A stretch of 64,000 nt of DNA from Achromobacter pestifer (lineage in GTDB: Bacteria; Pseudomonadota; Gammaproteobacteria; Burkholderiales; Burkholderiaceae_B): positions 806,001 through 870,000 of the forward strand of contig NZ_CP053985.1 in assembly GCF_013267355.1 (NCBI RefSeq), written 5' to 3'. The stretch's first letter is position 1. Each line of letters starts with the position of its first letter. The translations under genes were made by a program, and so were the position numbers. This document shows, piece by piece, positions 7,618 to 17,306 of this stretch. Under the pieces are notes generated by a model. The model ran no database searches and was not told the DNA's origin. It worked only from the letters and a program-made list of their open reading frames with translations.

Positions 7618-8088
7618 CTACAGGAAGCGGTCCAGCAGCTTGCGGCTGTGCTTGTCCAGCGACTGGATGTCGCGCACCAGATAAAAGATGCCGTGGCTGT
7701 CGGCGATCAGCAGGGTCTGCGGACTCAGGCGGCGGATGTCCTCTTCGCCGCGCAGCGTGAACGAGGTGGGACCGCGATCGGTATCGACTTGCCAGGTGCT
7801 CGGCGTCGCGAAGGTGGAGACGCTGGCCAGCTTGCGGATCTCGGGCATGAATTCCCGGCTCGCCAACTCTTCCTCGATCAGCGCGCGCTGCGGGGCCGGC
7901 ACATCGGACAGGTGTTCGATCCAGACCAGTTCGCGCCCGTCCGCCGTCACGAGCGACAGGCCGCGGCCCGGTTCGCTGATGGGAAAGGCCCGCACGGGCA
8001 GCACGCCCTCGTGGTTCTGGCCATCGGCGGACTGGAACTCCAGGCGCCCGAAGGCATTGCGGCGCAGCTGAAAAGACGGCAAGGTCAT
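7618..8088 (-). CDS. DUF1854 protein, cyanophycin-metabolism-associated family
   Basis: 156 residues, no signal peptide or membrane span. The sequence opens F-Q-L-R-R-N-A-F-G-R-L and has V-L-P-V-R-A-F-P-I-S-E-P and V-W-I-E-H-L, the DUF1854 pattern. Members of this family are regularly found beside cyanophycin synthetase genes, hence the family label; no activity is known. It starts 22 bases after the stop of the ABC transporter gene on the same strand, so both are probably one transcript diverging from the two cphA genes. Inference: an accessory or regulatory subunit for the transporter or for cyanophycin handling. Confidence 0.8.
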   Translation of the reverse strand: MTLPSFQLRRNAFGRLEFQSADGQNHEGVLPVRAFPISEPGRGLSLVTADGRELVWIEHLSDVPAPQRALIEEELASREFMPEIRKLASVSTFATPSTWQVDTDRGPTSFTLRGEEDIRRLSPQTLLIADSHGIFYLVRDIQSLDKHSRKLLDRFL

Positions 8089-8109
8089 GACGATAATTCC
8101 AGTTCCGCG

Positions 8110-10395
8110 TCAGGCCACGGCGGCCATGTCTTCGCTGCCCGACGCCTGCGCGTCGGCCTCGGCCTGGCGCGCCTGCGCCTGGTACAGGCGATAGTAGGCG
8201 CCCTCGCGGGCCATCAGTTCCTCGTGCGGGCCCTGCTCCACGATCTGGCCGCGGTCCAGCACCACCAGGCGGTCCGCCTTGCGCAAGGTGCTCAAGCGGT
8301 GGGCGATGGCGATCGTGGTGCGGCCGCGCACCAGGTTGTCCAGCGCCTTCTGGATTTCCTTTTCCGTGGTGGTGTCCACCGACGAGGTCGCCTCGTCCAG
8401 GATCAGGATGCGCGGATCGATCAGCAGCGCGCGCGCGATCGAGATGCGCTGGCGTTCGCCGCCGGACAAGGCCTGGCCGCGCTCGCCGACCAGCGAGTCA
8501 TAGCCGTGCGGCAGCCGCAGGATGAACTCGTGCGCATGCGCGGCGCGCGCCGCGGCCAAGATTTCGTCACGGGTGGCGTCCGGCTTGCCGTAGGCGATGT
8601 TCTCGGCGATGGTGCCGAAGAACAGGAAAGGCTCCTGCAGCACCAGCCCGATATTGCGCCGGTAGTCCGCCACGCGCACCGAGCGTATGTCGGCGCCGTC
8701 CACCAGCACCGCGCCCTCGGACACGTCGTAGAAGCGGCAGATCAGGTTGATCAGCGTGCTCTTGCCCGAGCCGCTATGGCCCACCAGGCCGATCATCTCG
8801 CCAGGGGCGATATTCAGGTTCAGCCCGCGGATGACCTGGCGGTTGCCGTAACGGAAACCCACGTCGCGCAATTCGATGCGGCCGTTGATATGCGGCAGCT
8901 TGGCCGGGTTCTGCGGCTCCGGCACGCTGGACACGTGGTCCAGGATGTCGAAGATGCGCTTGGCGCCGGCCGCGGCCTTTTGCGTGACCGAGACGATGCG
9001 GCTCATCGAATCCAGGCGCATGTAGAAGCGCCCGATATAGGCCAGGAAGGCGGCCAGCACACCGACGGTGATCTGCTTCTGCGACACCTGCCAGATACCG
9101 AAGATCCACACCACCAGCAGACCCACCTCGGTCAAAAACGTGACGGTGGGCGAGAACAGCGACCAGGTGGTGTTCACGCGGTCGTTGACTTCCAGGTTGC
9201 GGTTGTTGGCTTCGCGAAAGCGCGCGACTTCGCGCTTTTCCTGCGCGAAAGCCTTGACCACGCGGATGCCCGGTATGGTGTCGGCCAGGACGTTGGTGAT
9301 TTCCGACCAGATGCGGTCGACCTTTTCGAAGCCATGGCGCAGGCGGTCGCGCACCGCGTGGATCATCCAGATGATGAACGGCAGCGGCACCAGCGTGACC
9401 AGCGCCAGCCACGGGTTGATGGACACCAGGATGACCGCCGTCATGACGATCATCAGGATGTCGTTGGCGAAATCCAGCAAGTGCAACGACAGGAACACGC
9501 AGATACGGTCGGTTTCGCTGCCGATGCGGGAAATCAGGTCCCCGGTGCGCTTGCCGCCGAAATACTCCAGCGACAGCTGCTGCAGGTGCTCATAGGTAGT
9601 GGTGCGCAGGTCCGCGCCGATGCGCTCGCTGACCCAGGCCAGGATGTAGGTGCGGGCCCAACCCAGGCCCCAGGCCAGGAAAGCCGAGGCCAGCAGCCCT
9701 CCCAGATAGAGGCGGACCTTGTCGTAATCGATGGGCGCGCCGTTCTGGAATGGAATCAGCACGTCGTCCATCAGCGGCATGGTCAGATACGGCGGCACCA
9801 GGGTGGCGGCCGTGCCCAGCAGGGTCAGCACGAAACCCGCCAGCAGCGGCCCGCGGTAGGGGCGGGCGAAACGCCACAGGCGCAGCAGCGCCCACGTGGT
9901 GGATGGCGCCGCCTGTTCCTGGTTGCAGGTCGGGCATTCTTCCTCGCCCGCCGGAATGACGTTATTACAGACGGTGCAGGTGCGCTCCGCCAGTTCCTCG
10001 TCCTGATGGCCGGACAAACGGATGGCCTGCTGGGTCTCGAACTGCGCCAGCAGGCGCAGCGCGGCCGGATTGCGCGCCAGCGTGAAACGCCAGGCGCCCA
10101 GGCGGGAGCCGTCGTCGTGCAATTCCAGCAGCGCGGCGCCGGCGTGGTCGGTCAGGCTCAGCTTTAATTGGGGGCCGTATGCCCAGGATTCCCAGCGCGG
10201 CTCGTCCGGATGGCGAGCCAACAGCCGGCGGTCGGTAGCGGCGACCAGCCCCGGGCGGAACTTCAGGCGCTGATCCAGGTCTATTTCAACCCAGGCCAAC
10301 AAGGTTTCGCCATCCGCCAGTTCGGCGCGGATTTCATCCCGCCAGCGGGCAGGAAAGGCTTCGGCAAGGCCGGAAAGCAGGTTTGGTTTTTTCAT
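8110..10395 (-). CDS. ABC transporter (fused TMD-NBD) with N-terminal PH-like part and zinc ribbon, cyanophycin-associated
   Basis: 761 residues from ATG 10395; the ribosome site is weak, so the start could differ slightly. Residues 1-135 form a soluble N-terminal domain. C140-x2-C143-x10-C154-x2-C157 makes a zinc-ribbon knuckle before the membrane part. Residues about 180-480 hold the six-helix exporter domain, and the C-terminal third the nucleotide-binding domain with Walker A G-H-S-G-S-G-K-S-T, signature L-S-G-G-E-R-Q-R and Walker B I-L-I-L-D-E-A. This is an exporter-type half transporter that would homodimerise. It sits next to DUF1854 and diverges from cphA. Substrate unknown; export of a cyanophycin-related peptide or a regulatory role are both possible. 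Confidence 0.85.
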   Translation of the reverse strand: MKKPNLLSGLAEAFPARWRDEIRAELADGETLLAWVEIDLDQRLKFRPGLVAATDRRLLARHPDEPRWESWAYGPQLKLSLTDHAGAALLELHDDGSRLGAWRFTLARNPAALRLLAQFETQQAIRLSGHQDEELAERTCTVCNNVIPAGEEECPTCNQEQAAPSTTWALLRLWRFARPYRGPLLAGFVLTLLGTAATLVPPYLTMPLMDDVLIPFQNGAPIDYDKVRLYLGGLLASAFLAWGLGWARTYILAWVSERIGADLRTTTYEHLQQLSLEYFGGKRTGDLISRIGSETDRICVFLSLHLLDFANDILMIVMTAVILVSINPWLALVTLVPLPFIIWMIHAVRDRLRHGFEKVDRIWSEITNVLADTIPGIRVVKAFAQEKREVARFREANNRNLEVNDRVNTTWSLFSPTVTFLTEVGLLVVWIFGIWQVSQKQITVGVLAAFLAYIGRFYMRLDSMSRIVSVTQKAAAGAKRIFDILDHVSSVPEPQNPAKLPHINGRIELRDVGFRYGNRQVIRGLNLNIAPGEMIGLVGHSGSGKSTLINLICRFYDVSEGAVLVDGADIRSVRVADYRRNIGLVLQEPFLFFGTIAENIAYGKPDATRDEILAAARAAHAHEFILRLPHGYDSLVGERGQALSGGERQRISIARALLIDPRILILDEATSSVDTTTEKEIQKALDNLVRGRTTIAIAHRLSTLRKADRLVVLDRGQIVEQGPHEELMAREGAYYRLYQAQARQAEADAQASGSEDMAAVA

Positions 10396-10657
10396 TGGAA
10401 CGCATACCGGGCCAGGACTCTGCCCTACTAGGCGGCAACCGGTTCGCAACCTGGACTGGCGGCAAACGTGTCCCTTCCTTACAACATAACGATTTCACGC
10501 TTTGAAGGCGTCGTATAGTAGCAGCCGATTTTTCTAATTAGGAATATCTGGGATCCCCCACTCGTTGGCATTATTCTAAGGGCGCAACCCCAATAAATTC
10601 GCGGTCTTGCATAGGGGCGTCCGCGCGTGCCAACCTGCTTCTCCAGTAAATTAAAAC
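10396..10657. promoter_or_regulatory. Divergent promoter region between the ABC transporter and cphA'
   Basis: 262 bases without a gene, less GC-rich than the flanks. TATAGT at 10514-10519 is a fair -10 candidate for the rightward cphA genes, but no good -35 is seen at the right distance. No convincing Shine-Dalgarno precedes the cphA' ATG at 10658, whose upstream bases are AT-rich, which may mean low or regulated translation. No palindrome of note. Confidence 0.3.
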
Positions 10658-13273
10658 ATGAAAAAGAAAGACATTGAATTTCTCGATGTCGTGGCTTTGC
10701 GCGGCCCGAACATTTGGACGTATCGCCCGGTACTCGAAGCGTGGGTGGATATCGGTGAATTGGAGGACTACCCCTCCAACACCATCCCCGGCTTTTACGA
10801 ACGCCTGACGGAATGGCTGCCGACCCTGATCGAGCACCGCTGCAGCCCGGGAGTCCGGGGCGGCTTCCTGTCGCGCCTGAAGGAAGGCACCTGGCCCGGC
10901 CACATACTTGAACATGTCACCCTGGAACTGCAGAACCTGGCCGGCTTGCGCGGCGGTTTCGGCAAGGCCCGGGAAACCTCCACCCGCGGCGTCTACAAGG
11001 TCGTGGTGCGCGCCTGGCAGGAACAGGTCACCCGCACCGCCCTGAACGAAGCCCGCGACCTGGTCATGGCCGCCATCGAGGACCGCCCCTTCGACGTGCC
11101 CGCCGCCATCGCCAAGCTGCGCAGCCTGATCGACAAACACTGTCTCGGCCCCAGCACCGCCTGCATCGTGGACGCCGCCGACGACCGCGACATCCCCTAT
11201 ATCCGCCTGTTCGAGGGCAACCTCGTGCAGTTCGGCTACGGCTCGGCCCAGCGCCGCATCTGGACGGCCGAAACCGATCGCACCAGCGCCATCGCCGAAG
11301 GCATTTCGCGCGACAAGGACCTGACCAAGGAACTGCTGTCGACCTGCGGCGTGCCCGTGCCCGAAGGCCGCCTCGTGCGCAGCGAGGACGACGCCTGGGA
11401 AGCGGCCGAGGACATCGGCCTGCCAGTGGTCGTGAAGCCCTATGACGGCAACCATGGCCGCGGCGTGTTCACCAACCTGACCACGCGCGAGGAAGTGGTG
11501 TCGGCCTACCGCGTGGCCGTGGACGAAGGCAGCGGCGTGATCGTCGAGCGCTTCGTGCTGGGCAACGAGCACCGCCTGCTGGTCGTGGGCGACCGCATGG
11601 TGGCCGCCGCCGCCGGCGAACCGGCCTGGGTGACGGGCGACGGCAAGTCCACCATCACCGAACTCATCGACAGCCAGATCAATACCGACCCGCGCCGCGG
11701 CCGCACCGAGAACCATCCGCTGAATCCGGTGCGCCTGGATTCCGCCGCGCGGCTGGAAATCGCCCGCCAGGGCCTGTCGGAAGACAGCGTTCCGCCCGAA
11801 GGCCAGCGCGTGCTGGTGCAGCGCAGCGGCAACGTCGCCTTCGACGTGACCGACCGCGTGCACCCCAGCATTGCCGCCACGGTGACCCTGGCCGCGCGCA
11901 TCGTGGGCCTGGACATCGCCGGCGTGGACCTGGTGGCCGAAGACATCTCCCGCCCGCTGGAAGAACAGCGCGGCGCCATCGTCGAAGTCAATGCCGGCCC
12001 CGGCCTGCTGATGCACCTGAAGCCGGCCGACGGCACCCCGCGCCCGGTGGGCCGCGCCATCGTCGACCATCTGTTCCCCGAAGGCGACGCTGGCCGCATC
12101 CCCATCGTGGGCGTGACCGGCACCAACGGCAAGACCGTGGTGGCGCGCCTGGTGGCCCGCCTGCTGAGCCTGTCCGGCAAGCGCACCGGCCTGGCCTGCA
12201 GCGAAGGCCTCTATCTGGACCGCCGCCAGGTGCAAAAGGGCGACCGCGCCGATTTCGCCTCGGGCACGCGCCTGCTGATGAACCGCAACCTGGACGCCGC
12301 CGTCATCGAGAACGACAGCAGCGTGATCCTGGGCCAGGGCCTGGCCTATGACCGCTGCCAGGTGGGCGTGGTCACCAACATCGACGACGCCGACCACCTC
12401 GGCGACTTCGACATCAACGAAACGGAACGCATGTTCAACGTGTTCCGCACCCAGGTGGACGTGGTGCTGCCCGGCGGCGCCACCGTGCTGAACGCGCGCG
12501 ATCCGCGCGTGGTGGAAATGGCCGAGCTGAGCGACGGCGCCGTGATCTTCTTCGGCATCGACCCCGCCCTGCCCGCCATCGCCGCCCACCTGCAGCAGGA
12601 CGGCCGCGCCGTGTTCGTGCGCGACGGCGGCATCGTGCTGGCGCAAGGCAGCCGCGAGGAACGCCTGGCCACGGTGGCCTCGATCCCGCTGACCCATGGC
12701 GGGCGCGTGGCCTTCCAGGTCGAGAACGTGCTGGCCGCCGTGGGCGCCGCCTGGGCGCTGGACATCCCGGTGGAGCTGATCCGAGCCGGCATCGAAACCT
12801 TCGACATCGACCAGGCCGACGCGCCCTGGCAGTTCACGCTGTTCGAACGCAACGGCAGCACCGTGGTGGTCGACGATGTGCACAACGCCTCGGCGCTGCG
12901 CCCCCTGATCGCCGCCATCGACCAGTTCCCGTCGACCACGCGCGCCGCCGTCTATTCGGCCGGCGCGGACCGCCGCGACGCGGACCTGATCGAACAGGGC
13001 AAGCTGCTGGGCGACGCCTTCGACCGCGTGGTGCTCTACGACGACCTGACCGTGCGCAGCAAGCGCCCCGCGGGCGAGGCGCGCGCGCTGCTGCGCCAAG
13101 GCCTGGAGCAAGGCTCCCGCGTCAAGGACATCCACGACGAACCCGACCACGGCAAGGCCATCCAGAGCCAGCTCGACCGCATCGCCGCAGGCGACTTCGT
13201 CCTGCTGCAGTCCGACGAAGCCTTCTCCGGTCCCACCATCGACCTGGTCCGCCGCTGGATTCAGCAATACTGA
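10658..13273 (+). CDS. cphA': Cyanophycin synthetase paralogue with degenerate Mur-ligase domain (CphA')
   Basis: 871 residues, full length for CphA1, which polymerises Asp and Arg into cyanophycin. Domains: N domain (1-160), ATP-grasp (about 165-480, K260-P-Y-D-G-N-H-G-R-G), and Mur-ligase-like (485-871). The N domain keeps a metallopeptidase-like H82-x-x-E85-H86 and L-E-L-Q. The Mur part keeps G488-T-N-G-K-T but has V-V where CphA has T-T. It has E551-N-D-S-S-V in place of the E-T-A-R-G-G motif, D-D-V-H-N-A in place of D-Y-G-H-N-P, and L451 where CphA has R440. So the arginine-adding site looks impaired while the rest looks intact. It is followed after 62 bases by cphA on the same strand. 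Confidence 0.85.
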   Translation: MKKKDIEFLDVVALRGPNIWTYRPVLEAWVDIGELEDYPSNTIPGFYERLTEWLPTLIEHRCSPGVRGGFLSRLKEGTWPGHILEHVTLELQNLAGLRGGFGKARETSTRGVYKVVVRAWQEQVTRTALNEARDLVMAAIEDRPFDVPAAIAKLRSLIDKHCLGPSTACIVDAADDRDIPYIRLFEGNLVQFGYGSAQRRIWTAETDRTSAIAEGISRDKDLTKELLSTCGVPVPEGRLVRSEDDAWEAAEDIGLPVVVKPYDGNHGRGVFTNLTTREEVVSAYRVAVDEGSGVIVERFVLGNEHRLLVVGDRMVAAAAGEPAWVTGDGKSTITELIDSQINTDPRRGRTENHPLNPVRLDSAARLEIARQGLSEDSVPPEGQRVLVQRSGNVAFDVTDRVHPSIAATVTLAARIVGLDIAGVDLVAEDISRPLEEQRGAIVEVNAGPGLLMHLKPADGTPRPVGRAIVDHLFPEGDAGRIPIVGVTGTNGKTVVARLVARLLSLSGKRTGLACSEGLYLDRRQVQKGDRADFASGTRLLMNRNLDAAVIENDSSVILGQGLAYDRCQVGVVTNIDDADHLGDFDINETERMFNVFRTQVDVVLPGGATVLNARDPRVVEMAELSDGAVIFFGIDPALPAIAAHLQQDGRAVFVRDGGIVLAQGSREERLATVASIPLTHGGRVAFQVENVLAAVGAAWALDIPVELIRAGIETFDIDQADAPWQFTLFERNGSTVVVDDVHNASALRPLIAAIDQFPSTTRAAVYSAGADRRDADLIEQGKLLGDAFDRVVLYDDLTVRSKRPAGEARALLRQGLEQGSRVKDIHDEPDHGKAIQSQLDRIAAGDFVLLQSDEAFSGPTIDLVRRWIQQY

Positions 13274-13282
13274 CAATATCTG

Positions 13283-13312
13283 CGCGCGCCCTCGCCCAAG
13301 CGCGGGCGCGCG
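13283..13312 (+). other. Intercistronic hairpin between cphA' and cphA
   Basis: CGCGCGCCC (13283-13291) pairs perfectly with GGGCGCGCG (13304-13312) around a 12-base loop, with no T tract after it. It is better read as an mRNA stability or attenuation element than a true terminator, and could set different levels of the two synthetases. Confidence 0.5.
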
Positions 13313-13335
13313 TGAGCTAGACAGGAATACCTGCC

Positions 13336-15906
13336 ATGGAAGTTTCCCGTATCCGAGCACTGCGCGGCCCCAATCTGTGGAGCAAGAACACCGCGATCGA
13401 GGCCATTGTTTCCTGCGCCGACGCCGAATGCTCCATCGACAACCTGCCTGACTTCGAAGCGCGCCTGCGCGCGCGGCTGCCCCAGACCGGGCTGCTGCGT
13501 CCGGAAGGCCATCAGGGCGCGGTCTCCATCGCGCACGTGCTGCAGATCGTGGCCCTGACGATGCAGGCGCACGCCGGCTGCCCCGTCACGTTCGGCCGCA
13601 CCGCCTCCACCATCGAGCCCGGCGTGTTCCAGGTGGTGGTCGAGTACAGCGAAGAAGAAGTCGGCATGCTGGCGATGGAACTGGCGCAAGTGCTGGTGCG
13701 CGCCGCGCTGGACGACACGCCCTTCGATCTCGCCGATGCCTTGAAGCGCCTGCGCGAGCTCGACGAAGACGTGCGCCTGGGGCCCAGCACCGGCTCCATC
13801 GTCAACGCCGCCACCGCCCGCAACATCCCCTACCGCCGCCTGACCCAGGGCAGCATGGTGCAGTTCGGCTGGGGCAGCAAGCAGCGCCGCATCCAGGCCG
13901 CCGAAACCGACCTGACCAGCGCCATCTCCGAATCCATCGCCCAGGACAAGGACCTGACCAAGATGCTGCTGGACTCGGCCGGCGTGCCGGTGCCCATGGG
14001 CCGCTCGGTGACCACCGCGGAAGAAGCCTGGGCCGCGGCCGAAGAGCTGGGCGGCCCGGTCGTGGTCAAGCCGCGCGACGGCAGCCAGGGCCGCGGCGTC
14101 GCCGTCAACATCGAAACGCGCGAACGCGTGATCCAGGCCTTTGAAGTGGCCGAGGAAATCAGCTCCGAAGTCATCGTCGAACGCTACATTCCCGGCCACG
14201 ACTTCCGCCTGCTGGTGGTGGGCGGCGCGCTGGTCGCGGCCTCGCGCCGCGATCCGCCGCAAGTCACCGGCGACGGGGTGCAGACCATCCGCCAACTGGT
14301 GGACCAGGTCAACGCGGACCCGCTGCGCGGCGATGGCCATGCGACCTCGCTGACCAAGATCCGCTTCGACGACATCGCCCTGGCGACCCTCAAGAAGCAG
14401 GGTTTCGACGCCGACTCCGTGCCGCCGTCCGGCACCCTGATCTTCCTGCGCAACAACGCCAACCTCAGCACCGGCGGCTCAGCCACCGACGTCACCGACG
14501 AGGTGCACCCCGAGATGGCCGCGCGCGCGGTGTCGGCGGCCCGCATGATCGGGCTGGACATCTGCGGCGTGGACGTGGTGGCCGAAAGCGTGCTCTATCC
14601 GCTGGAAGACCAGCACGGCGGCGTGGTGGAAGTGAACGCCGCGCCCGGCCTGCGCATGCACCTGAATCCCTCGTTCGGCAAGGGCCGCGCCGTGGGCGAC
14701 GCCATCATCGCCAATATGTACGCGGACGGCGACGACGGCCGCATCCCCGTGGTGGCCGTCGCCGGCACCAACGGCAAGACCACCACCGTGCGCCTGACCG
14801 CCCATATCCTGGGCGTGGCCGGCAACCGCGTCGGCATGACCAACTCCGACGGCGTCTACGTCGACAACCTGCGCATCGACACGGGCGACTGCAGCGGCCC
14901 GCGCAGCGCCCGCAGCGTCCTGATGCACCCCGACGTGGACGCGGCCGTGTTCGAAACCGCGCGCGGCGGCATCCTGCGCGAGGGCCTGGCCTTCGACCGC
15001 TGCAACGTGGCCATCGTCACCAACATCGGCATGGGCGACCACCTGGGCCTGGGCTACATCAGCACGGTCGAAGACCTGGCCGTGGTCAAGCGCGTGATCG
15101 TGCAGCACGTGTATCCGAGCGGCACCGCGGTGCTGAACGCGGCCGACCCCATCGTGGCCGAAATGGCCGCGAGCTGCCCGGGCTCGATCACCTACTTCGC
15201 CGAGGACCGCAACCATCCCGTGCTGGCCACGCACCGCGCCCAAGGCTTGCGCTGCGTGTACCGCGACGGCGACTCCATCGTCACCGCGCAAGGCGCCGAA
15301 GAGACCCGCTACCCGCTGGCCTCGATTCCGCTCACGCGCAACGGCGCCATCACCTTCCAGGTGGAAAACGCCATGGCGTCGATCGCCGCCGCCTGGGCCC
15401 TGGGCCTGGACACGGACGTCATCCGCCGCGGCCTGGCCACTTTTGTCAACGATGCCCAGACCGCGCCCGGACGCTTCAACGTGTTCGACTACCGCGGCGC
15501 CACGGTGATCGCCGACTACGGCCACAATCCCGACGCCATCCTGGCCCTGGTGCGCGCGGTGGACGCCATGCCCGCCAAGCGGCGCTCCGTTGTCATCAGC
15601 GGCGCGGGCGACCGGCGCGACGAAGACATCCGGATGCAGACCGAGATCCTCGGCGACGCCTTCGACGACGTGCTGCTCTACCAGGACCAGTGCCAACGCG
15701 GCCGCGCCGATGGCGAAGTGCTGGCGCTGCTGCAGCAGGGCCTGGTCAACGCCACGCGCAGCAAGCATGTCGAAGAGATCCACGGCGAATTTCTCGCCAT
15801 CGACACGGCGCTGACGCGCCTGGGCGCCGGCGACCTTTGCCTGATCCTGGTCGACCAGGTCGAAGAGGCGCTGGATCACATCGCGCGCCGCATCGCGCAA
15901 GCCTGA
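13336..15906 (+). CDS. cphA: Cyanophycin synthetase (CphA), intact Mur-ligase domain, altered N domain
   Basis: 856 residues; ACAGGA lies 10 bases before the ATG. The three-domain CphA1 layout is complete: N domain (1-150), ATP-grasp (about 150-465, K245-P-R-D-G-S-Q-G-R-G) and Mur ligase (470-856). The Mur ligase motifs are all there: G477-T-N-G-K-T-T-T, E540-T-A-R-G-G, D-H-L-G-L-G and D727-Y-G-H-N-P. The N-domain metallo motif is lost: aligned positions are H67, Q70, I71 and T75 instead of H, E, H, E. The ATP-grasp loop has S-Q where CphA' has N-H. It therefore complements the defects in its neighbour. It would act in the cytoplasm making the Asp-Arg reserve polymer. Confidence 0.9.
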   Translation: MEVSRIRALRGPNLWSKNTAIEAIVSCADAECSIDNLPDFEARLRARLPQTGLLRPEGHQGAVSIAHVLQIVALTMQAHAGCPVTFGRTASTIEPGVFQVVVEYSEEEVGMLAMELAQVLVRAALDDTPFDLADALKRLRELDEDVRLGPSTGSIVNAATARNIPYRRLTQGSMVQFGWGSKQRRIQAAETDLTSAISESIAQDKDLTKMLLDSAGVPVPMGRSVTTAEEAWAAAEELGGPVVVKPRDGSQGRGVAVNIETRERVIQAFEVAEEISSEVIVERYIPGHDFRLLVVGGALVAASRRDPPQVTGDGVQTIRQLVDQVNADPLRGDGHATSLTKIRFDDIALATLKKQGFDADSVPPSGTLIFLRNNANLSTGGSATDVTDEVHPEMAARAVSAARMIGLDICGVDVVAESVLYPLEDQHGGVVEVNAAPGLRMHLNPSFGKGRAVGDAIIANMYADGDDGRIPVVAVAGTNGKTTTVRLTAHILGVAGNRVGMTNSDGVYVDNLRIDTGDCSGPRSARSVLMHPDVDAAVFETARGGILREGLAFDRCNVAIVTNIGMGDHLGLGYISTVEDLAVVKRVIVQHVYPSGTAVLNAADPIVAEMAASCPGSITYFAEDRNHPVLATHRAQGLRCVYRDGDSIVTAQGAEETRYPLASIPLTRNGAITFQVENAMASIAAAWALGLDTDVIRRGLATFVNDAQTAPGRFNVFDYRGATVIADYGHNPDAILALVRAVDAMPAKRRSVVISGAGDRRDEDIRMQTEILGDAFDDVLLYQDQCQRGRADGEVLALLQQGLVNATRSKHVEEIHGEFLAIDTALTRLGAGDLCLILVDQVEEALDHIARRIAQA

Positions 15907-16100: not shown

Positions 16101-16505
16101 GCGGGTTCCTCTTCCTTTTTCTGCGGCCGAACGTGGTTGCCGGTTCCGCCATGACTATACCGTCGCGCCCGCCCGCAAGCCAGCCGCGCCCGCCCCGGCG
16201 GCAGCCGCAGATCCGGTTACCAGCCCCACTCAAAAGAGGACAAGACATTGCCGGAATGTAACTGCCACATCTAGTGCGCCTGCAACCTCGCCTCGCCGGA
16301 AATCAGGGCTTTTTGCAGACTGACGGCCGTTACATTTGCCCACAGCCTGGTTTGACGGCCATGCCGCATGGCTCGTACGGTGAATGCATGGCCTGCACGA
16401 CATCTTCTATATCGACAGGCTCTAGCTGATCAGTGTCCCACTCAACCGCGACAGCCCGGTTTACAGGCCGCAAACCGGATGGCGCAAGCAACAGGAGAGG
16501 TCACC
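16101..16505. promoter_or_regulatory. Gene-free divergent promoter region (small lipoprotein / csbD operon)
   Basis: 405 bases with no supported coding frame. On the minus strand TATAGT (16159-16154) is a good -10 for the small lipoprotein, giving a leader of about 45 bases. On the plus strand TTGACG (16352-16357) with a poor -10 is the best candidate for the csbD operon. AATGTAAC (16255-16262) and its inverse GTTACATT (16329-16336) form a widely spaced inverted pair that might bind a regulator. Confidence 0.3.
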
Positions 16506-16706
16506 ATGAACAACGACATCATCGCTGGCAAATGGAAGCAACTGGCAGGCAAGGCCAAGGTCGCCTGGGGCGAGCTCACCGACGACGAGCTGACCCGCAG
16601 CGAAGGCAACGCCGAACGTCTGGCGGGCCTGATCCAGGAGCGCTACGGCAAGACCCGCGAACAGGCGGAAAAGGAAGTCCGCGACTTCTTCGACCGCAAT
16701 CCTTGA
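16506..16706 (+). CDS. csbD: CsbD family stress protein
   Basis: 66 residues; CAGGAGAGG precedes the ATG. It is a highly charged, helical, soluble protein with the CsbD pattern: I-I-A-G-K-W-K-Q-L-A-G-K near the start, W-G-E-L-T-D-D-E and G-L-I-Q-E-R-Y-G-K-T-R-E-Q-A. CsbD-like proteins are general-stress markers in many bacteria, with unknown molecular action. It is the first gene of a three-gene stress set with a DUF1328 membrane peptide and a BON protein, separated by 27 and 69 bases. Confidence 0.9.
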   Translation: MNNDIIAGKWKQLAGKAKVAWGELTDDELTRSEGNAERLAGLIQERYGKTREQAEKEVRDFFDRNP

Positions 16707-16733
16707 TCCGATCAACCACCAGGAGAAGCTGAC

Positions 16734-16898
16734 ATGTTGCACTACGCCGTCGTTTTCTTCGTCATTGCCATCATCGCCGCTGTCCTGGGTTTCGGCGGCA
16801 TCGCCGCCGGCGCTGCCGGTATCGCCAAGATCCTGTTCTTCGTCTTTCTGGTACTGGCGCTGCTGTCCATCCTCGGCGGCGCATTCCGCAAGAAATAG
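16734..16898 (+). CDS. DUF1328 small membrane protein (YtjA-like)
   Basis: 54 residues with two hydrophobic helices (about 4-20 and 30-48), a [14 protein letters not shown] turn and a basic F-R-K-K end. This is the DUF1328 pattern of inner-membrane peptides frequently found with CsbD genes. AGGAG lies upstream (CACCAGGAGAAGCTGAC before ATG). Function is unknown; it is likely a stress-induced membrane peptide given the neighbours. Confidence 0.85.
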
Positions 16899-16967
16899 AA
16901 CTCGCACCCAAGACACCACGCAATCCTCGCGCCCCGACGCGCTGAACCACTAACAAGGAGCATGACT

Positions 16968-17306
16968 ATGGAATTCCGCAAGCTGATCGCCGCCGCCGCA
17001 CTGGGCACGGGCGCCGTCTTCACTTCCATGGCTTTTGCCGCCGACGACGGCAAGCCGAAACAATCCGTGGGTGAATACGCGTCCGACGCCACCGTGACCA
17101 CCAAGGTCAAGGCCGCCATCGTGGCCGACAAACAGCTGAGCGCGCTGGACATCGCCGTGGAGACCAATGCGGGCGTCACCAAGCTGACAGGCACCGTCGG
17201 CACCGCAGCCGAAGCCGATCATGCCGCCACCGTGGCGCGCGGCGTCGAAGGCGTGAAACAGGTGATGAACAACATCAAGGTCGACCCGGCCAAGAACAAG
17301 AAGTAA
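16968..17306 (+). CDS. BON domain periplasmic protein
   Basis: 112 residues from ATG 16968. AAGGAG is 7 bases before this ATG but only 1 base before the upstream ATG (16962), so the second is chosen. A signal peptide ends at A-F-A-A (about residue 22). The rest is one BON domain: D-A-T-V-T-T-K-V-K-A-A-I, then V-E-T-N-A-G-V-T-K-L-T-G-T-V and a final V-M-N-N-I-K-V. BON domains bind phospholipid and help envelope integrity, as in OsmY. It is the third gene of the csbD operon, consistent with osmotic or envelope stress. Confidence 0.88.
   Translation: MEFRKLIAAAALGTGAVFTSMAFAADDGKPKQSVGEYASDATVTTKVKAAIVADKQLSALDIAVETNAGVTKLTGTVGTAAEADHAATVARGVEGVKQVMNNIKVDPAKNKK

What the first reader, a model, noticed from the sequence alone, without database searches (positions are those of the whole stretch)
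10658..15906. Two tandem full-length cyanophycin synthetases have lost motifs in complementary domains
Seen directly: CphA' keeps H82-x-x-E85-H86 and L-E-L-Q in the N domain, where CphA has H67, Q70, I71, T75. In the Mur-ligase domain CphA keeps T-T after G-T-N-G-K-T, E540-T-A-R-G-G and D-Y-G-H-N-P, while CphA' has V-V, E551-N-D-S-S-V and D-D-V-H-N-A. The ATP-grasp loops also differ (N-H against S-Q; L451 against R440). From family knowledge, CphA1 has an ATP-grasp site adding Asp, a Mur-like site adding Arg, and in some enzymes an N-domain site that trims polymer into primers. The pattern suggests CphA' does priming and Asp addition while CphA does Arg addition, possibly as a hetero-oligomer.
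Basis: partly seen in the sequence, partly recalled or inferred. Interest (0 to 1): 0.78.

Follow-up and report, generated by a model that had tools for sequence, protein, structure and literature searches.

The report
Polymer enzyme split into two genes
In this bacterium and its relatives the enzyme that makes the nitrogen-storage polymer cyanophycin looks split over two neighbouring genes, one keeping the site that cuts starter pieces and the other keeping the sites that build the chain, which would show how a three-site enzyme can divide its work between two proteins.

Summary
The allocation of jobs is not.

Against structurally solved CphA1, the upstream protein (CphA', 10658-13273) keeps the N-domain metallopeptidase (primer-making) site in 95 of 95 non-redundant orthologues. 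It keeps the Asp-adding G site in 0 of 95 and the Arg-adding M site in 0 of 95. CphA (13336-15906) keeps N in 0 of 85, G in 85 of 85 and M in 84 of 85 (the miss is a truncated row). The nearest listed single-gene enzymes keep all three in 93 of 93.

So CphA' is not the usual Asp adder: it lost R323, R458 and five residues of the Asp-binding loop. CphA is predicted to add both Asp and Arg; its H267Q is normal in the sister group (Gln in 77 of 93). The pair mirrors the laboratory-made N-G+M+/N+G-M- SuCphA1 heterodimer, which works.

Unexplained: CphA' keeps the ATP, Mg and R309 residues of its G site.

The pair type, an ABC transporter and a DUF1854 gene mark the same 41 of 120 genomes, mostly without cyanophycinase. 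Tandem cphA genes were known. I did not find the reciprocal loss in the open papers searched. No oligomer or activity was tested.

The parts
10658..13273 (+). cphA': N-domain site intact, G acceptor site lost, M site degenerate, 871 aa
10835..10852 (+). CphA' HRCSPG (aa 60-65): third zinc ligand Cys62 (= SuCphA1 C59) and H60 (= H57)
   Evidence: function from PMC9262961
10898..10915 (+). CphA' GHILEH (aa 81-86): HxxEH metallopeptidase motif (H79, E82, H83 in SuCphA1)
   Evidence: 95 of 95 orthologues
11444..11464 (+). CphA' G-domain P-loop DGNHGRG with H267
   Evidence: H in 93 of 95
11606..11623 (+). CphA' AAAGEP: R323 of the Asp site replaced by Gly
11819..11854 (+). CphA' QRSGNVAFDVTD: Asp-binding omega loop, five residues shorter
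11990..12016 (+). CphA' NAGPGLLMH: R458 of the Asp site replaced by Leu451
12119..12325 (+). CphA' M-core motifs GTNGKT-VV to ENDSSV (ARGG lost)
12809..13270 (+). CphA' M-lid, present here but absent in 70 of 79 nr85 pairs
13336..15906 (+). cphA: N-domain site lost, G and M sites intact, 856 aa; starts 62 nt after cphA' ends
14077..14097 (+). CphA G-domain P-loop DGSQGRG (Gln at 267, the common state in the complete sister enzymes)
14239..14256 (+). CphA ASRRDP carrying R323 of the Asp site
14455..14499 (+). CphA NANLSTGGSATDVTD: intact Asp-binding loop (N394, S396)
14635..14661 (+). CphA NAAPGLRMH carrying R458 (R440 here)
14764..15531 (+). CphA M site: GTNGKTT, ETARGG, GDHLG, DYGHNP
8110..10449 (-). 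ABC transporter NF052233 (cyanophycin metabolism-associated), divergent from cphA'; longest ORF as listed, an internal ATG start at 10401 was used for the family scan
7618..8088 (-). DUF1854 protein NF052234 (cyanophycin metabolism-associated)

Best explanation
A three-site cyanophycin synthetase has been partitioned between two adjacent genes. CphA is the polymerase: its G domain adds Asp and its M domain adds Arg, and it has no working N-domain peptidase, so by itself it should be primer-dependent. CphA' is the primer-making partner. Its N-domain C-H-H zinc site cuts cyanophycin chains into primers, its M domain is dead or partly deleted, and its G domain has lost the Asp pocket. The two probably co-assemble as CphA1 protomers do, but trans action without assembly would also serve. 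Shown here: which residues are kept or lost, their fixation, co-occurrence and operon-like order, and purifying selection on both genes. Inferred: the activities, primer dependence and assembly.
For: Site counts: CphA' N 95 of 95, G 0 of 95, M 0 of 95; CphA N 0 of 85, G 85 of 85, M 84 of 85.

Losses by domain, N against the rest: CphA' 2 and 60, CphA 16 and 10.

The nearest listed single-gene enzymes keep all three sites, 93 of 93, mostly with Gln267 (77 of 93). CphA' and CphA are each one clade (100/100 and 100/98, on a sample of rows).

Tandem order: one strand in 78 of 78 nr pairs and a gap of 200 nt or less in 77 of 78. Co-occurrence: 147 of 148 family genomes with a match have two or more (matches not sorted into the two types; the exception is a fragmented genome of about 470 contigs, 89% complete). 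In the order sample no genome showed the CphA type alone.

Both proteins are under purifying selection in Achromobacter, including the dead M domain of CphA' (dN/dS 0.08 M-core, 0.13 M-lid).

Published biochemistry: an engineered N-G+M+/N+G-M- SuCphA1 heterodimer is active with and, somewhat less, without primer, and SuCphA1 with G and M inactivated gives primer-independent synthesis to TmCphA1 in trans (PMC9262961).
Against: No activity or assembly was tested. Both structure predictions were unfinished when I wrote.

CphA' keeps its G-domain ATP, Mg and R309 residues (K220, K261, D431, E450, N452, R309; also H460) in 95 of 95 and its G lid in 14 of 14 conserved positions. That is more than a passive scaffold seems to need.

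CphA has some departures of its own outside the N domain: Gln267, while H267A inactivates the G site of SuCphA1; E215 kept in 1 of 85, while E215A costs TeCphA1 most and SuCphA1 about half of its activity; T522 is Ser in 35 of 85. That Gln serves I infer from the sister group, which also has E215 in only 23 of 93, not from an assay.

No cyanophycin was found in Cupriavidus necator H16, nor when its genes were overexpressed there or in E. coli (Adames 2013, seen only as cited in PMC8560796 and PMC11362209).

In the engineered dimer, having N on the other protomer is somewhat less active without primer.
Confidence: 0.7

Rival explanations
1. The CphA' G domain is a live ATP-grasp ligase with a changed acceptor: it activates the chain end as acyl phosphate and joins something other than Asp (an amine, a dipeptide, a cap), besides the N-site activity.
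For: ATP, Mg and R309 residues kept 95 of 95 and H267 in 93 of 95. G core and lid are about as conserved as in CphA (identity 0.739 against 0.760; 0.642 against 0.591), while the M-site lysine K499 drifts (44 of 95). The acceptor pocket changed in one consistent way: R323 to G/S, R458 to L in 92 of 95, loop five residues shorter in 94 of 95.
Against: ATP binding may be needed only for fold or assembly. No candidate acceptor was identified. CphA2-like dipeptide use was not tested residue by residue, because no CphA2 sequence could be lined up.
Confidence: 0.2
2. CphA' is mainly the missing cyanophycin-degrading enzyme: in pair genomes its N-site endopeptidase replaces cyanophycinase in mobilising the polymer.
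For: Cyanophycinase (TIGR02069, the only cyanophycinase model searched) is over its cut-off in 4 of 41 pair genomes but in 3 of 3 single-CphA1 genomes of the same 120 and in 8 of 9 further single-gene genomes (the ninth is the MAG G544).
Against: The known N-site activity is slow and endo-acting, giving mainly fragments of four dipeptides (PMC9262961). A gene that sits in tandem with the synthetase is an odd place for a degradation enzyme. Another peptidase may exist.
Confidence: 0.12
3. One reading: CphA' primes and adds Asp, CphA adds only Arg.
For: CphA' keeps H267 (93 of 95), K220, K261, R309 and the Mg ligands; CphA has Gln267 (83 of 85).
Against: CphA' has lost R323, the S396-G399 loop and R458 in 95 of 95; CphA keeps them in 85 of 85. 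Gln267 occurs in 77 of 93 complete single-gene sister enzymes.
Confidence: 0.04
4. CphA' is an inactive regulatory or chaperone paralogue whose N site is conserved for zinc or structure only.
For: Two of three sites lack needed residues; pseudoenzyme paralogues of oligomeric enzymes are common (general knowledge, recalled).
Against: Zinc ligands, catalytic Glu and second-shell residues (H57, F67, R70, E87) are invariant, 95 of 95, as in catalytically active SuCphA1.
Confidence: 0.05

Closest known systems
CphA1 of Synechocystis and Trichodesmium (SuCphA1, 7lg5/7txu; TeCphA1, 7wac)
   Same: Three domains N, G, M. CphA has the G and M residues, CphA' has the N-site residues.
   Different: There one chain has all three sites; here neither chain has, and the losses are reciprocal.
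Primer-dependent CphA1 such as TmCphA1
   Same: N-site motif missing, G and M active, as predicted for CphA (PMC9262961).
   Different: Described there without a partner; CphA has an N-site-bearing gene 62 nt upstream.
CphA2
   Same: Lacks the M P-loop and the M-lid (PMC9427784); 70 of 79 nr85 CphA' lack the lid and 51 of 95 the P-loop lysine.
   Different: CphA2 lacks the N-site motif (PMC9262961), which CphA' keeps 95 of 95. CphA2 G-site residues could not be compared here.
Engineered SuCphA1 heterodimer N-G+M+/N+G-M- (PMC9262961)
   Same: Same division of active sites between two protomers.
   Different: Made by point mutation in a dimeric W672A background; in CphA' the G-site loss is in the Asp pocket, not the catalytic His.
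Tandem cphA genes of Betaproteobacteria (Group 1 cluster, PMC10687191; CphA1/CphA2 of Sideroxydans, PMC5178258)
   Same: Two adjacent cphA genes without cyanophycinase; in PMC10687191 also with an ABC transporter gene. I take them as the same pair; their sequences were not compared here.
   Different: In the passages I read they are described as two copies or two synthetases; active-site partition is not mentioned.

Membership tests
CphA1 (three-site cyanophycin synthetase) | Sequence over the NCBIfam TIGR02068 cut-off (850 bits) | tested here: met
   CphA' 898.7 bits, CphA 980.8 bits
CphA1, tested for CphA | G-domain Asp site (R309, R323, N394, S396, R458 with K220, K261, D431, E450; H267 not counted) | tested here: met
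   CphA: 85 of 85 complete; H267 itself is Gln in 83 of 85
CphA1, tested for CphA | M-domain site (K499, E558, R561, H586, K602, H748) | tested here: met
   CphA 84 of 85, the miss being a truncated row
CphA1, tested for CphA' | G-domain Asp site and M-domain Arg site | tested here: not met
   G 0 of 95, M 0 of 95; CphA' is therefore not filed as a CphA1
Primer-independent CphA1, tested for CphA | Cx19HxxEH motif in the N domain | tested here: not met
   CphA 0 of 85; CphA' carries the C, H, E, H residues, 95 of 95
CphA2, tested for CphA' | M P-loop and M-lid lost | tested here: inconclusive
   K499 kept in 44 of 95; lid lost in 70 of 79 nr85 pairs, but present in this window
CphA2, tested for CphA' | No N-domain HxxEH site | tested here: not met
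   CphA' keeps it 95 of 95
CphA2, tested for CphA' | Polymerises beta-Asp-Arg dipeptides | not testable with these tools
   needs an assay
Hetero-oligomeric enzyme | Physical complex of CphA and CphA' | not testable with these tools
   the tool folds single chains; monomer predictions did not finish

The most novel reading that the evidence does not exclude
CphA' is a new kind of enzyme: an N-site primer-cutter whose G domain still makes the acyl phosphate at the cyanophycin chain end but gives it to something other than Asp. Together with CphA, the dedicated ABC transporter and the DUF1854 protein it would make a modified, perhaps exported, cyanophycin-like polymer. That would fit the failure to find ordinary cyanophycin in Cupriavidus necator and the scarcity of cyanophycinase in pair genomes.
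Probability: 0.17. Interest if true: 0.85.

Novelty: new variant of a known kind. Interest (0 to 1): 0.64.

Why it matters
The primer-making motif is fully present in 83% of CphA1 sequences (PMC9262961); the rest were taken as primer-dependent. In the pair genomes examined here the missing site sits in the gene next door (how much of the 17% this explains was not counted). It offers a natural, testable case of a multi-site polymerase dividing primer-making and polymerisation between two proteins, parallel to an engineered heterodimer that already works. It suggests that engineers should express both genes. It also turns two old puzzles into experiments: why Cupriavidus makes no visible cyanophycin, and how bacteria without cyanophycinase use it.

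Tried and rejected
Rejected: CphA' as Asp adder (acceptor residues lost). Rejected: CphA G domain dead because of Gln267 (sister enzymes Gln in 77 of 93; an N-acetylglutaminylglutamine synthetase, L251, also has Gln there in the printed alignment). Rejected: CphA' as decaying pseudogene (dN/dS 0.05-0.13 by domain in 29 Achromobacter sequences).

Led nowhere: lining up CphA2 with CphA' in the Asp pocket. CphA2 always ranked below the five CphA1 chains whose alignments are printed, and plasmid records gave no cyanobacterial copy among the 60 of 122 rows shown. Looking for more relatives of the Magnetococcales MAG gene in its order: 1 of 48, the same gene. Branching order of CphA, CphA' and the sister clade: unresolved (86/53), so I cannot say whether the duplication came before or after the sister clade split off.

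Rows dropped: proteins under 550 aa were left out of the alignment; L214 and the two L195 genes were taken out of the CphA' and CphA sets by me (L195 counted among the 15 singles, L214 shown apart). The sister set is the best 120 of 8000 scored proteins, so it is the nearest part of that group only. Loci were found by likeness to CphA'. N394 in CphA' is an uncertain column next to the deletion. D585 reads as Gly in CphA by a one-residue alignment shift; the neighbouring column holds D in 85 of 85.
Full report
WHAT WAS CHECKED. The two ORFs lie at 10658-13273 (871 aa, CphA') and 13336-15906 (856 aa, CphA) on the + strand, 62 nt apart. The genome is an Achromobacter-like one (CphA' up to 99% identical in named Achromobacter records), and G000 has no other full-length copy. 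Both proteins pass the NCBIfam cyanophycin synthetase cut-off.

REFERENCE RESIDUES. From SuCphA1 and TeCphA1 papers: N domain C59, H79, H83 bind zinc and E82 is the base (PMC9262961, Results and Discussion read). G domain: R309 and H267 at the acyl phosphate, K220, K261, D431, E450 for ATP and Mg, E215 of the neighbouring protomer at the chain-end Arg, and R323, N394, R458 and the S396 pocket for Asp (PMC9427784, sections 7 and 8). M domain: K499, T500, T522, E558, R731, H748 for ATP and Mg (section 10). That K602 is the carbamylated lysine of Mur ligases I recall from family knowledge.

DATA SET. At 90% identity, with L214 and L195 set apart, these are 95 CphA' and 85 CphA, beside 15 single-type enzymes (SuCphA1, TeCphA1 and both L195 genes among them). 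Of the 148 family genomes with a match I fetched only a part (17 regions, beside those drawn through the order search).

RECIPROCAL LOSS. CphA': H57, C59, F67, R70, H79, E82, H83, E87 each 95 of 95; R323 to Gly or Ser 95 of 95; S396-G399 absent 95 of 95; R458 to Leu 92 of 95, none Arg; K499 44 of 95; H586 20 of 95. CphA: C59 0 of 85, F67 and R70 deleted 85 of 85; R323, N394, S396-G399, R458 85 of 85; K499, T500, E558, R561, G562, G563, H586 85 of 85; T522 is Thr in 50 and Ser in 35; H267 is Gln in 83; E215 is kept in 1. The omega-loop span is 26 aa in 94 of 95 CphA' (27 in one), 31 in 85 of 85 CphA and 15 of 15 singles. Counted over all positions conserved in the singles, N losses are 2 (CphA') and 16 (CphA), other losses 60 and 10, with 8 positions lost in both.

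COMPLETE SISTERS. A search with the MAG gene L214 scored 8000 proteins and listed the best 120; the few named ones are from Planctomycetota (Pirellulales, Isosphaeraceae, Thermoguttaceae and the like) and one Magnetococcales MAG. At 90% identity there are 93; the tested N, G and M residues are complete in 93 of 93, with Gln at 267 in 77, His in 15, Lys in 1, and E215 in 23. Whether these genomes hold a second cphA gene was not searched; I call them single because each protein has all three sites. In a tree of the G domain and linker without the trait columns (19 CphA', 19 CphA, 22 sister and 9 single-type rows), CphA' (100/100), CphA (100/98) and the sister set (91/85) are each one side of a branch and stand together against classical CphA1 (100/99); their order is unresolved.

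CONSTRAINT. Mean pairwise identity over 79 nr85 pairs, CphA' then CphA: N 0.639, 0.603; G core 0.739, 0.760; G lid 0.642, 0.591; G omega 0.565, 0.697; M core 0.476, 0.687. The M lid is lost in 70 of 79 CphA' (27 of 151 positions or fewer), partial in 1 and present in 8. In Achromobacter both genes are under purifying selection in every domain (median dN/dS 0.05-0.13; 29 CphA' and 28 CphA sequences).

CONTEXT. In 78 of 78 nr pairs the genes are on one strand, in 77 no more than 200 nt apart with the starts I chose. In 120 genomes of the order, 44 have a match: 41 with the CphA'/CphA type and 3 with one classical CphA1. Of the 41, one (G278) shows only CphA', whose contig ends there, and in G253 and G299 the two genes lie on different contigs. 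The same 41, and no other of the 120, have the ABC transporter NF052233 and the DUF1854 protein NF052234 over their cut-offs. Cyanophycinase TIGR02069, the only cyanophycinase model I searched, is over its cut-off in 7 of 120: all 3 single-CphA1 genomes and 4 pair genomes, one of which (G303) has a separate locus with two more cphA-like genes and a cyanophycinase next to it. In nine single-gene genomes of the phylum sample it is over the cut-off in 8; the exception is the Magnetococcales MAG G544, where the gene is divergent from an NF052233 ABC gene as in the window. That gene runs off its contig end and the MAG has 8% contamination, so a lost partner or a foreign contig cannot be excluded.

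MECHANISM. CphA keeps what is needed to add Asp and Arg, with Gln for His267, and lacks the primer-cutting site. CphA' keeps the primer-cutting site and lacks both synthetic sites. SuCphA1 made artificially into N-G+M+/N+G-M- dimers works, and SuCphA1 with dead G and M, or its N domain alone, gives TmCphA1 primer-independence in trans (PMC9262961). The natural pair fits that scheme. What does not fit a mere scaffold is the G domain of CphA': ATP, Mg and R309 residues are invariant (95 of 95), with His267 in 93 of 95. Either ATP closure of this domain matters for assembly, or it has another acceptor.

AGAINST. No assay. Gln267 and the loss of E215 in CphA touch residues whose Ala mutants harm CphA1, though the complete sisters share both changes. 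Published work on Cupriavidus necator H16, seen only through two reviews (PMC8560796, PMC11362209, passages), found no cyanophycin in the wild type or on overexpression; whether both genes were expressed together I could not read (paper not held).

KNOWN BEFORE. Two cphA genes side by side without cyanophycinase in Betaproteobacteria are described in PMC5178258 (passages) and PMC10687191 (section 3.3), and low cyanophycinase co-occurrence in beta-proteobacteria in PMC10206079 (Results part 1). NCBIfam already names the ABC and DUF1854 families as cyanophycin-associated. In the open library the listings of my searches showed no paper on reciprocal active-site loss; listings show titles and abstract starts only and subscription papers are not held, so this is not proof.

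VERDICT. Observation confirmed; interpretation half right: priming in CphA', but both additions in CphA. New variant of a known kind.

Noticed in passing
window 7618-10449 (-): ABC transporter NF052233 and DUF1854 protein NF052234, divergent from the pair; both occur in exactly the same 41 of 120 order genomes as the pair type. The transporter scores next against MsbA-like exporters and has a CxxC-type segment before the ABC part.
   Followed up: partly
G000 and order sample: No TIGR02069 cyanophycinase match in the window's genome, and one over the cut-off in only 4 of 41 pair genomes, while 3 of 3 and 8 of 9 single-gene genomes have one.
   Followed up: partly
L195 (G303:C1:5338900-5346400): A second locus with two further cphA-like genes facing each other, both with complete G and M residues and defective N sites, next to a cyanophycinase, in a genome that also has the tandem pair.
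   Followed up: no
L070 and L169 (G259): In these metagenome contigs the CphA reading frame is broken into two pieces; left as found.
   Followed up: no
L166 and L168: CphA' of 813 aa with about half of the M lid (87 positions left), between the 870-aa and 720-aa forms.
   Followed up: partly
window 16368-17306 (+): Downstream small genes: a CsbD-like protein (weak NF007748 match, under its cut-off; the CsbD name is recalled) and an OsmY-like protein (NF007858, under its cut-off).
   Followed up: no
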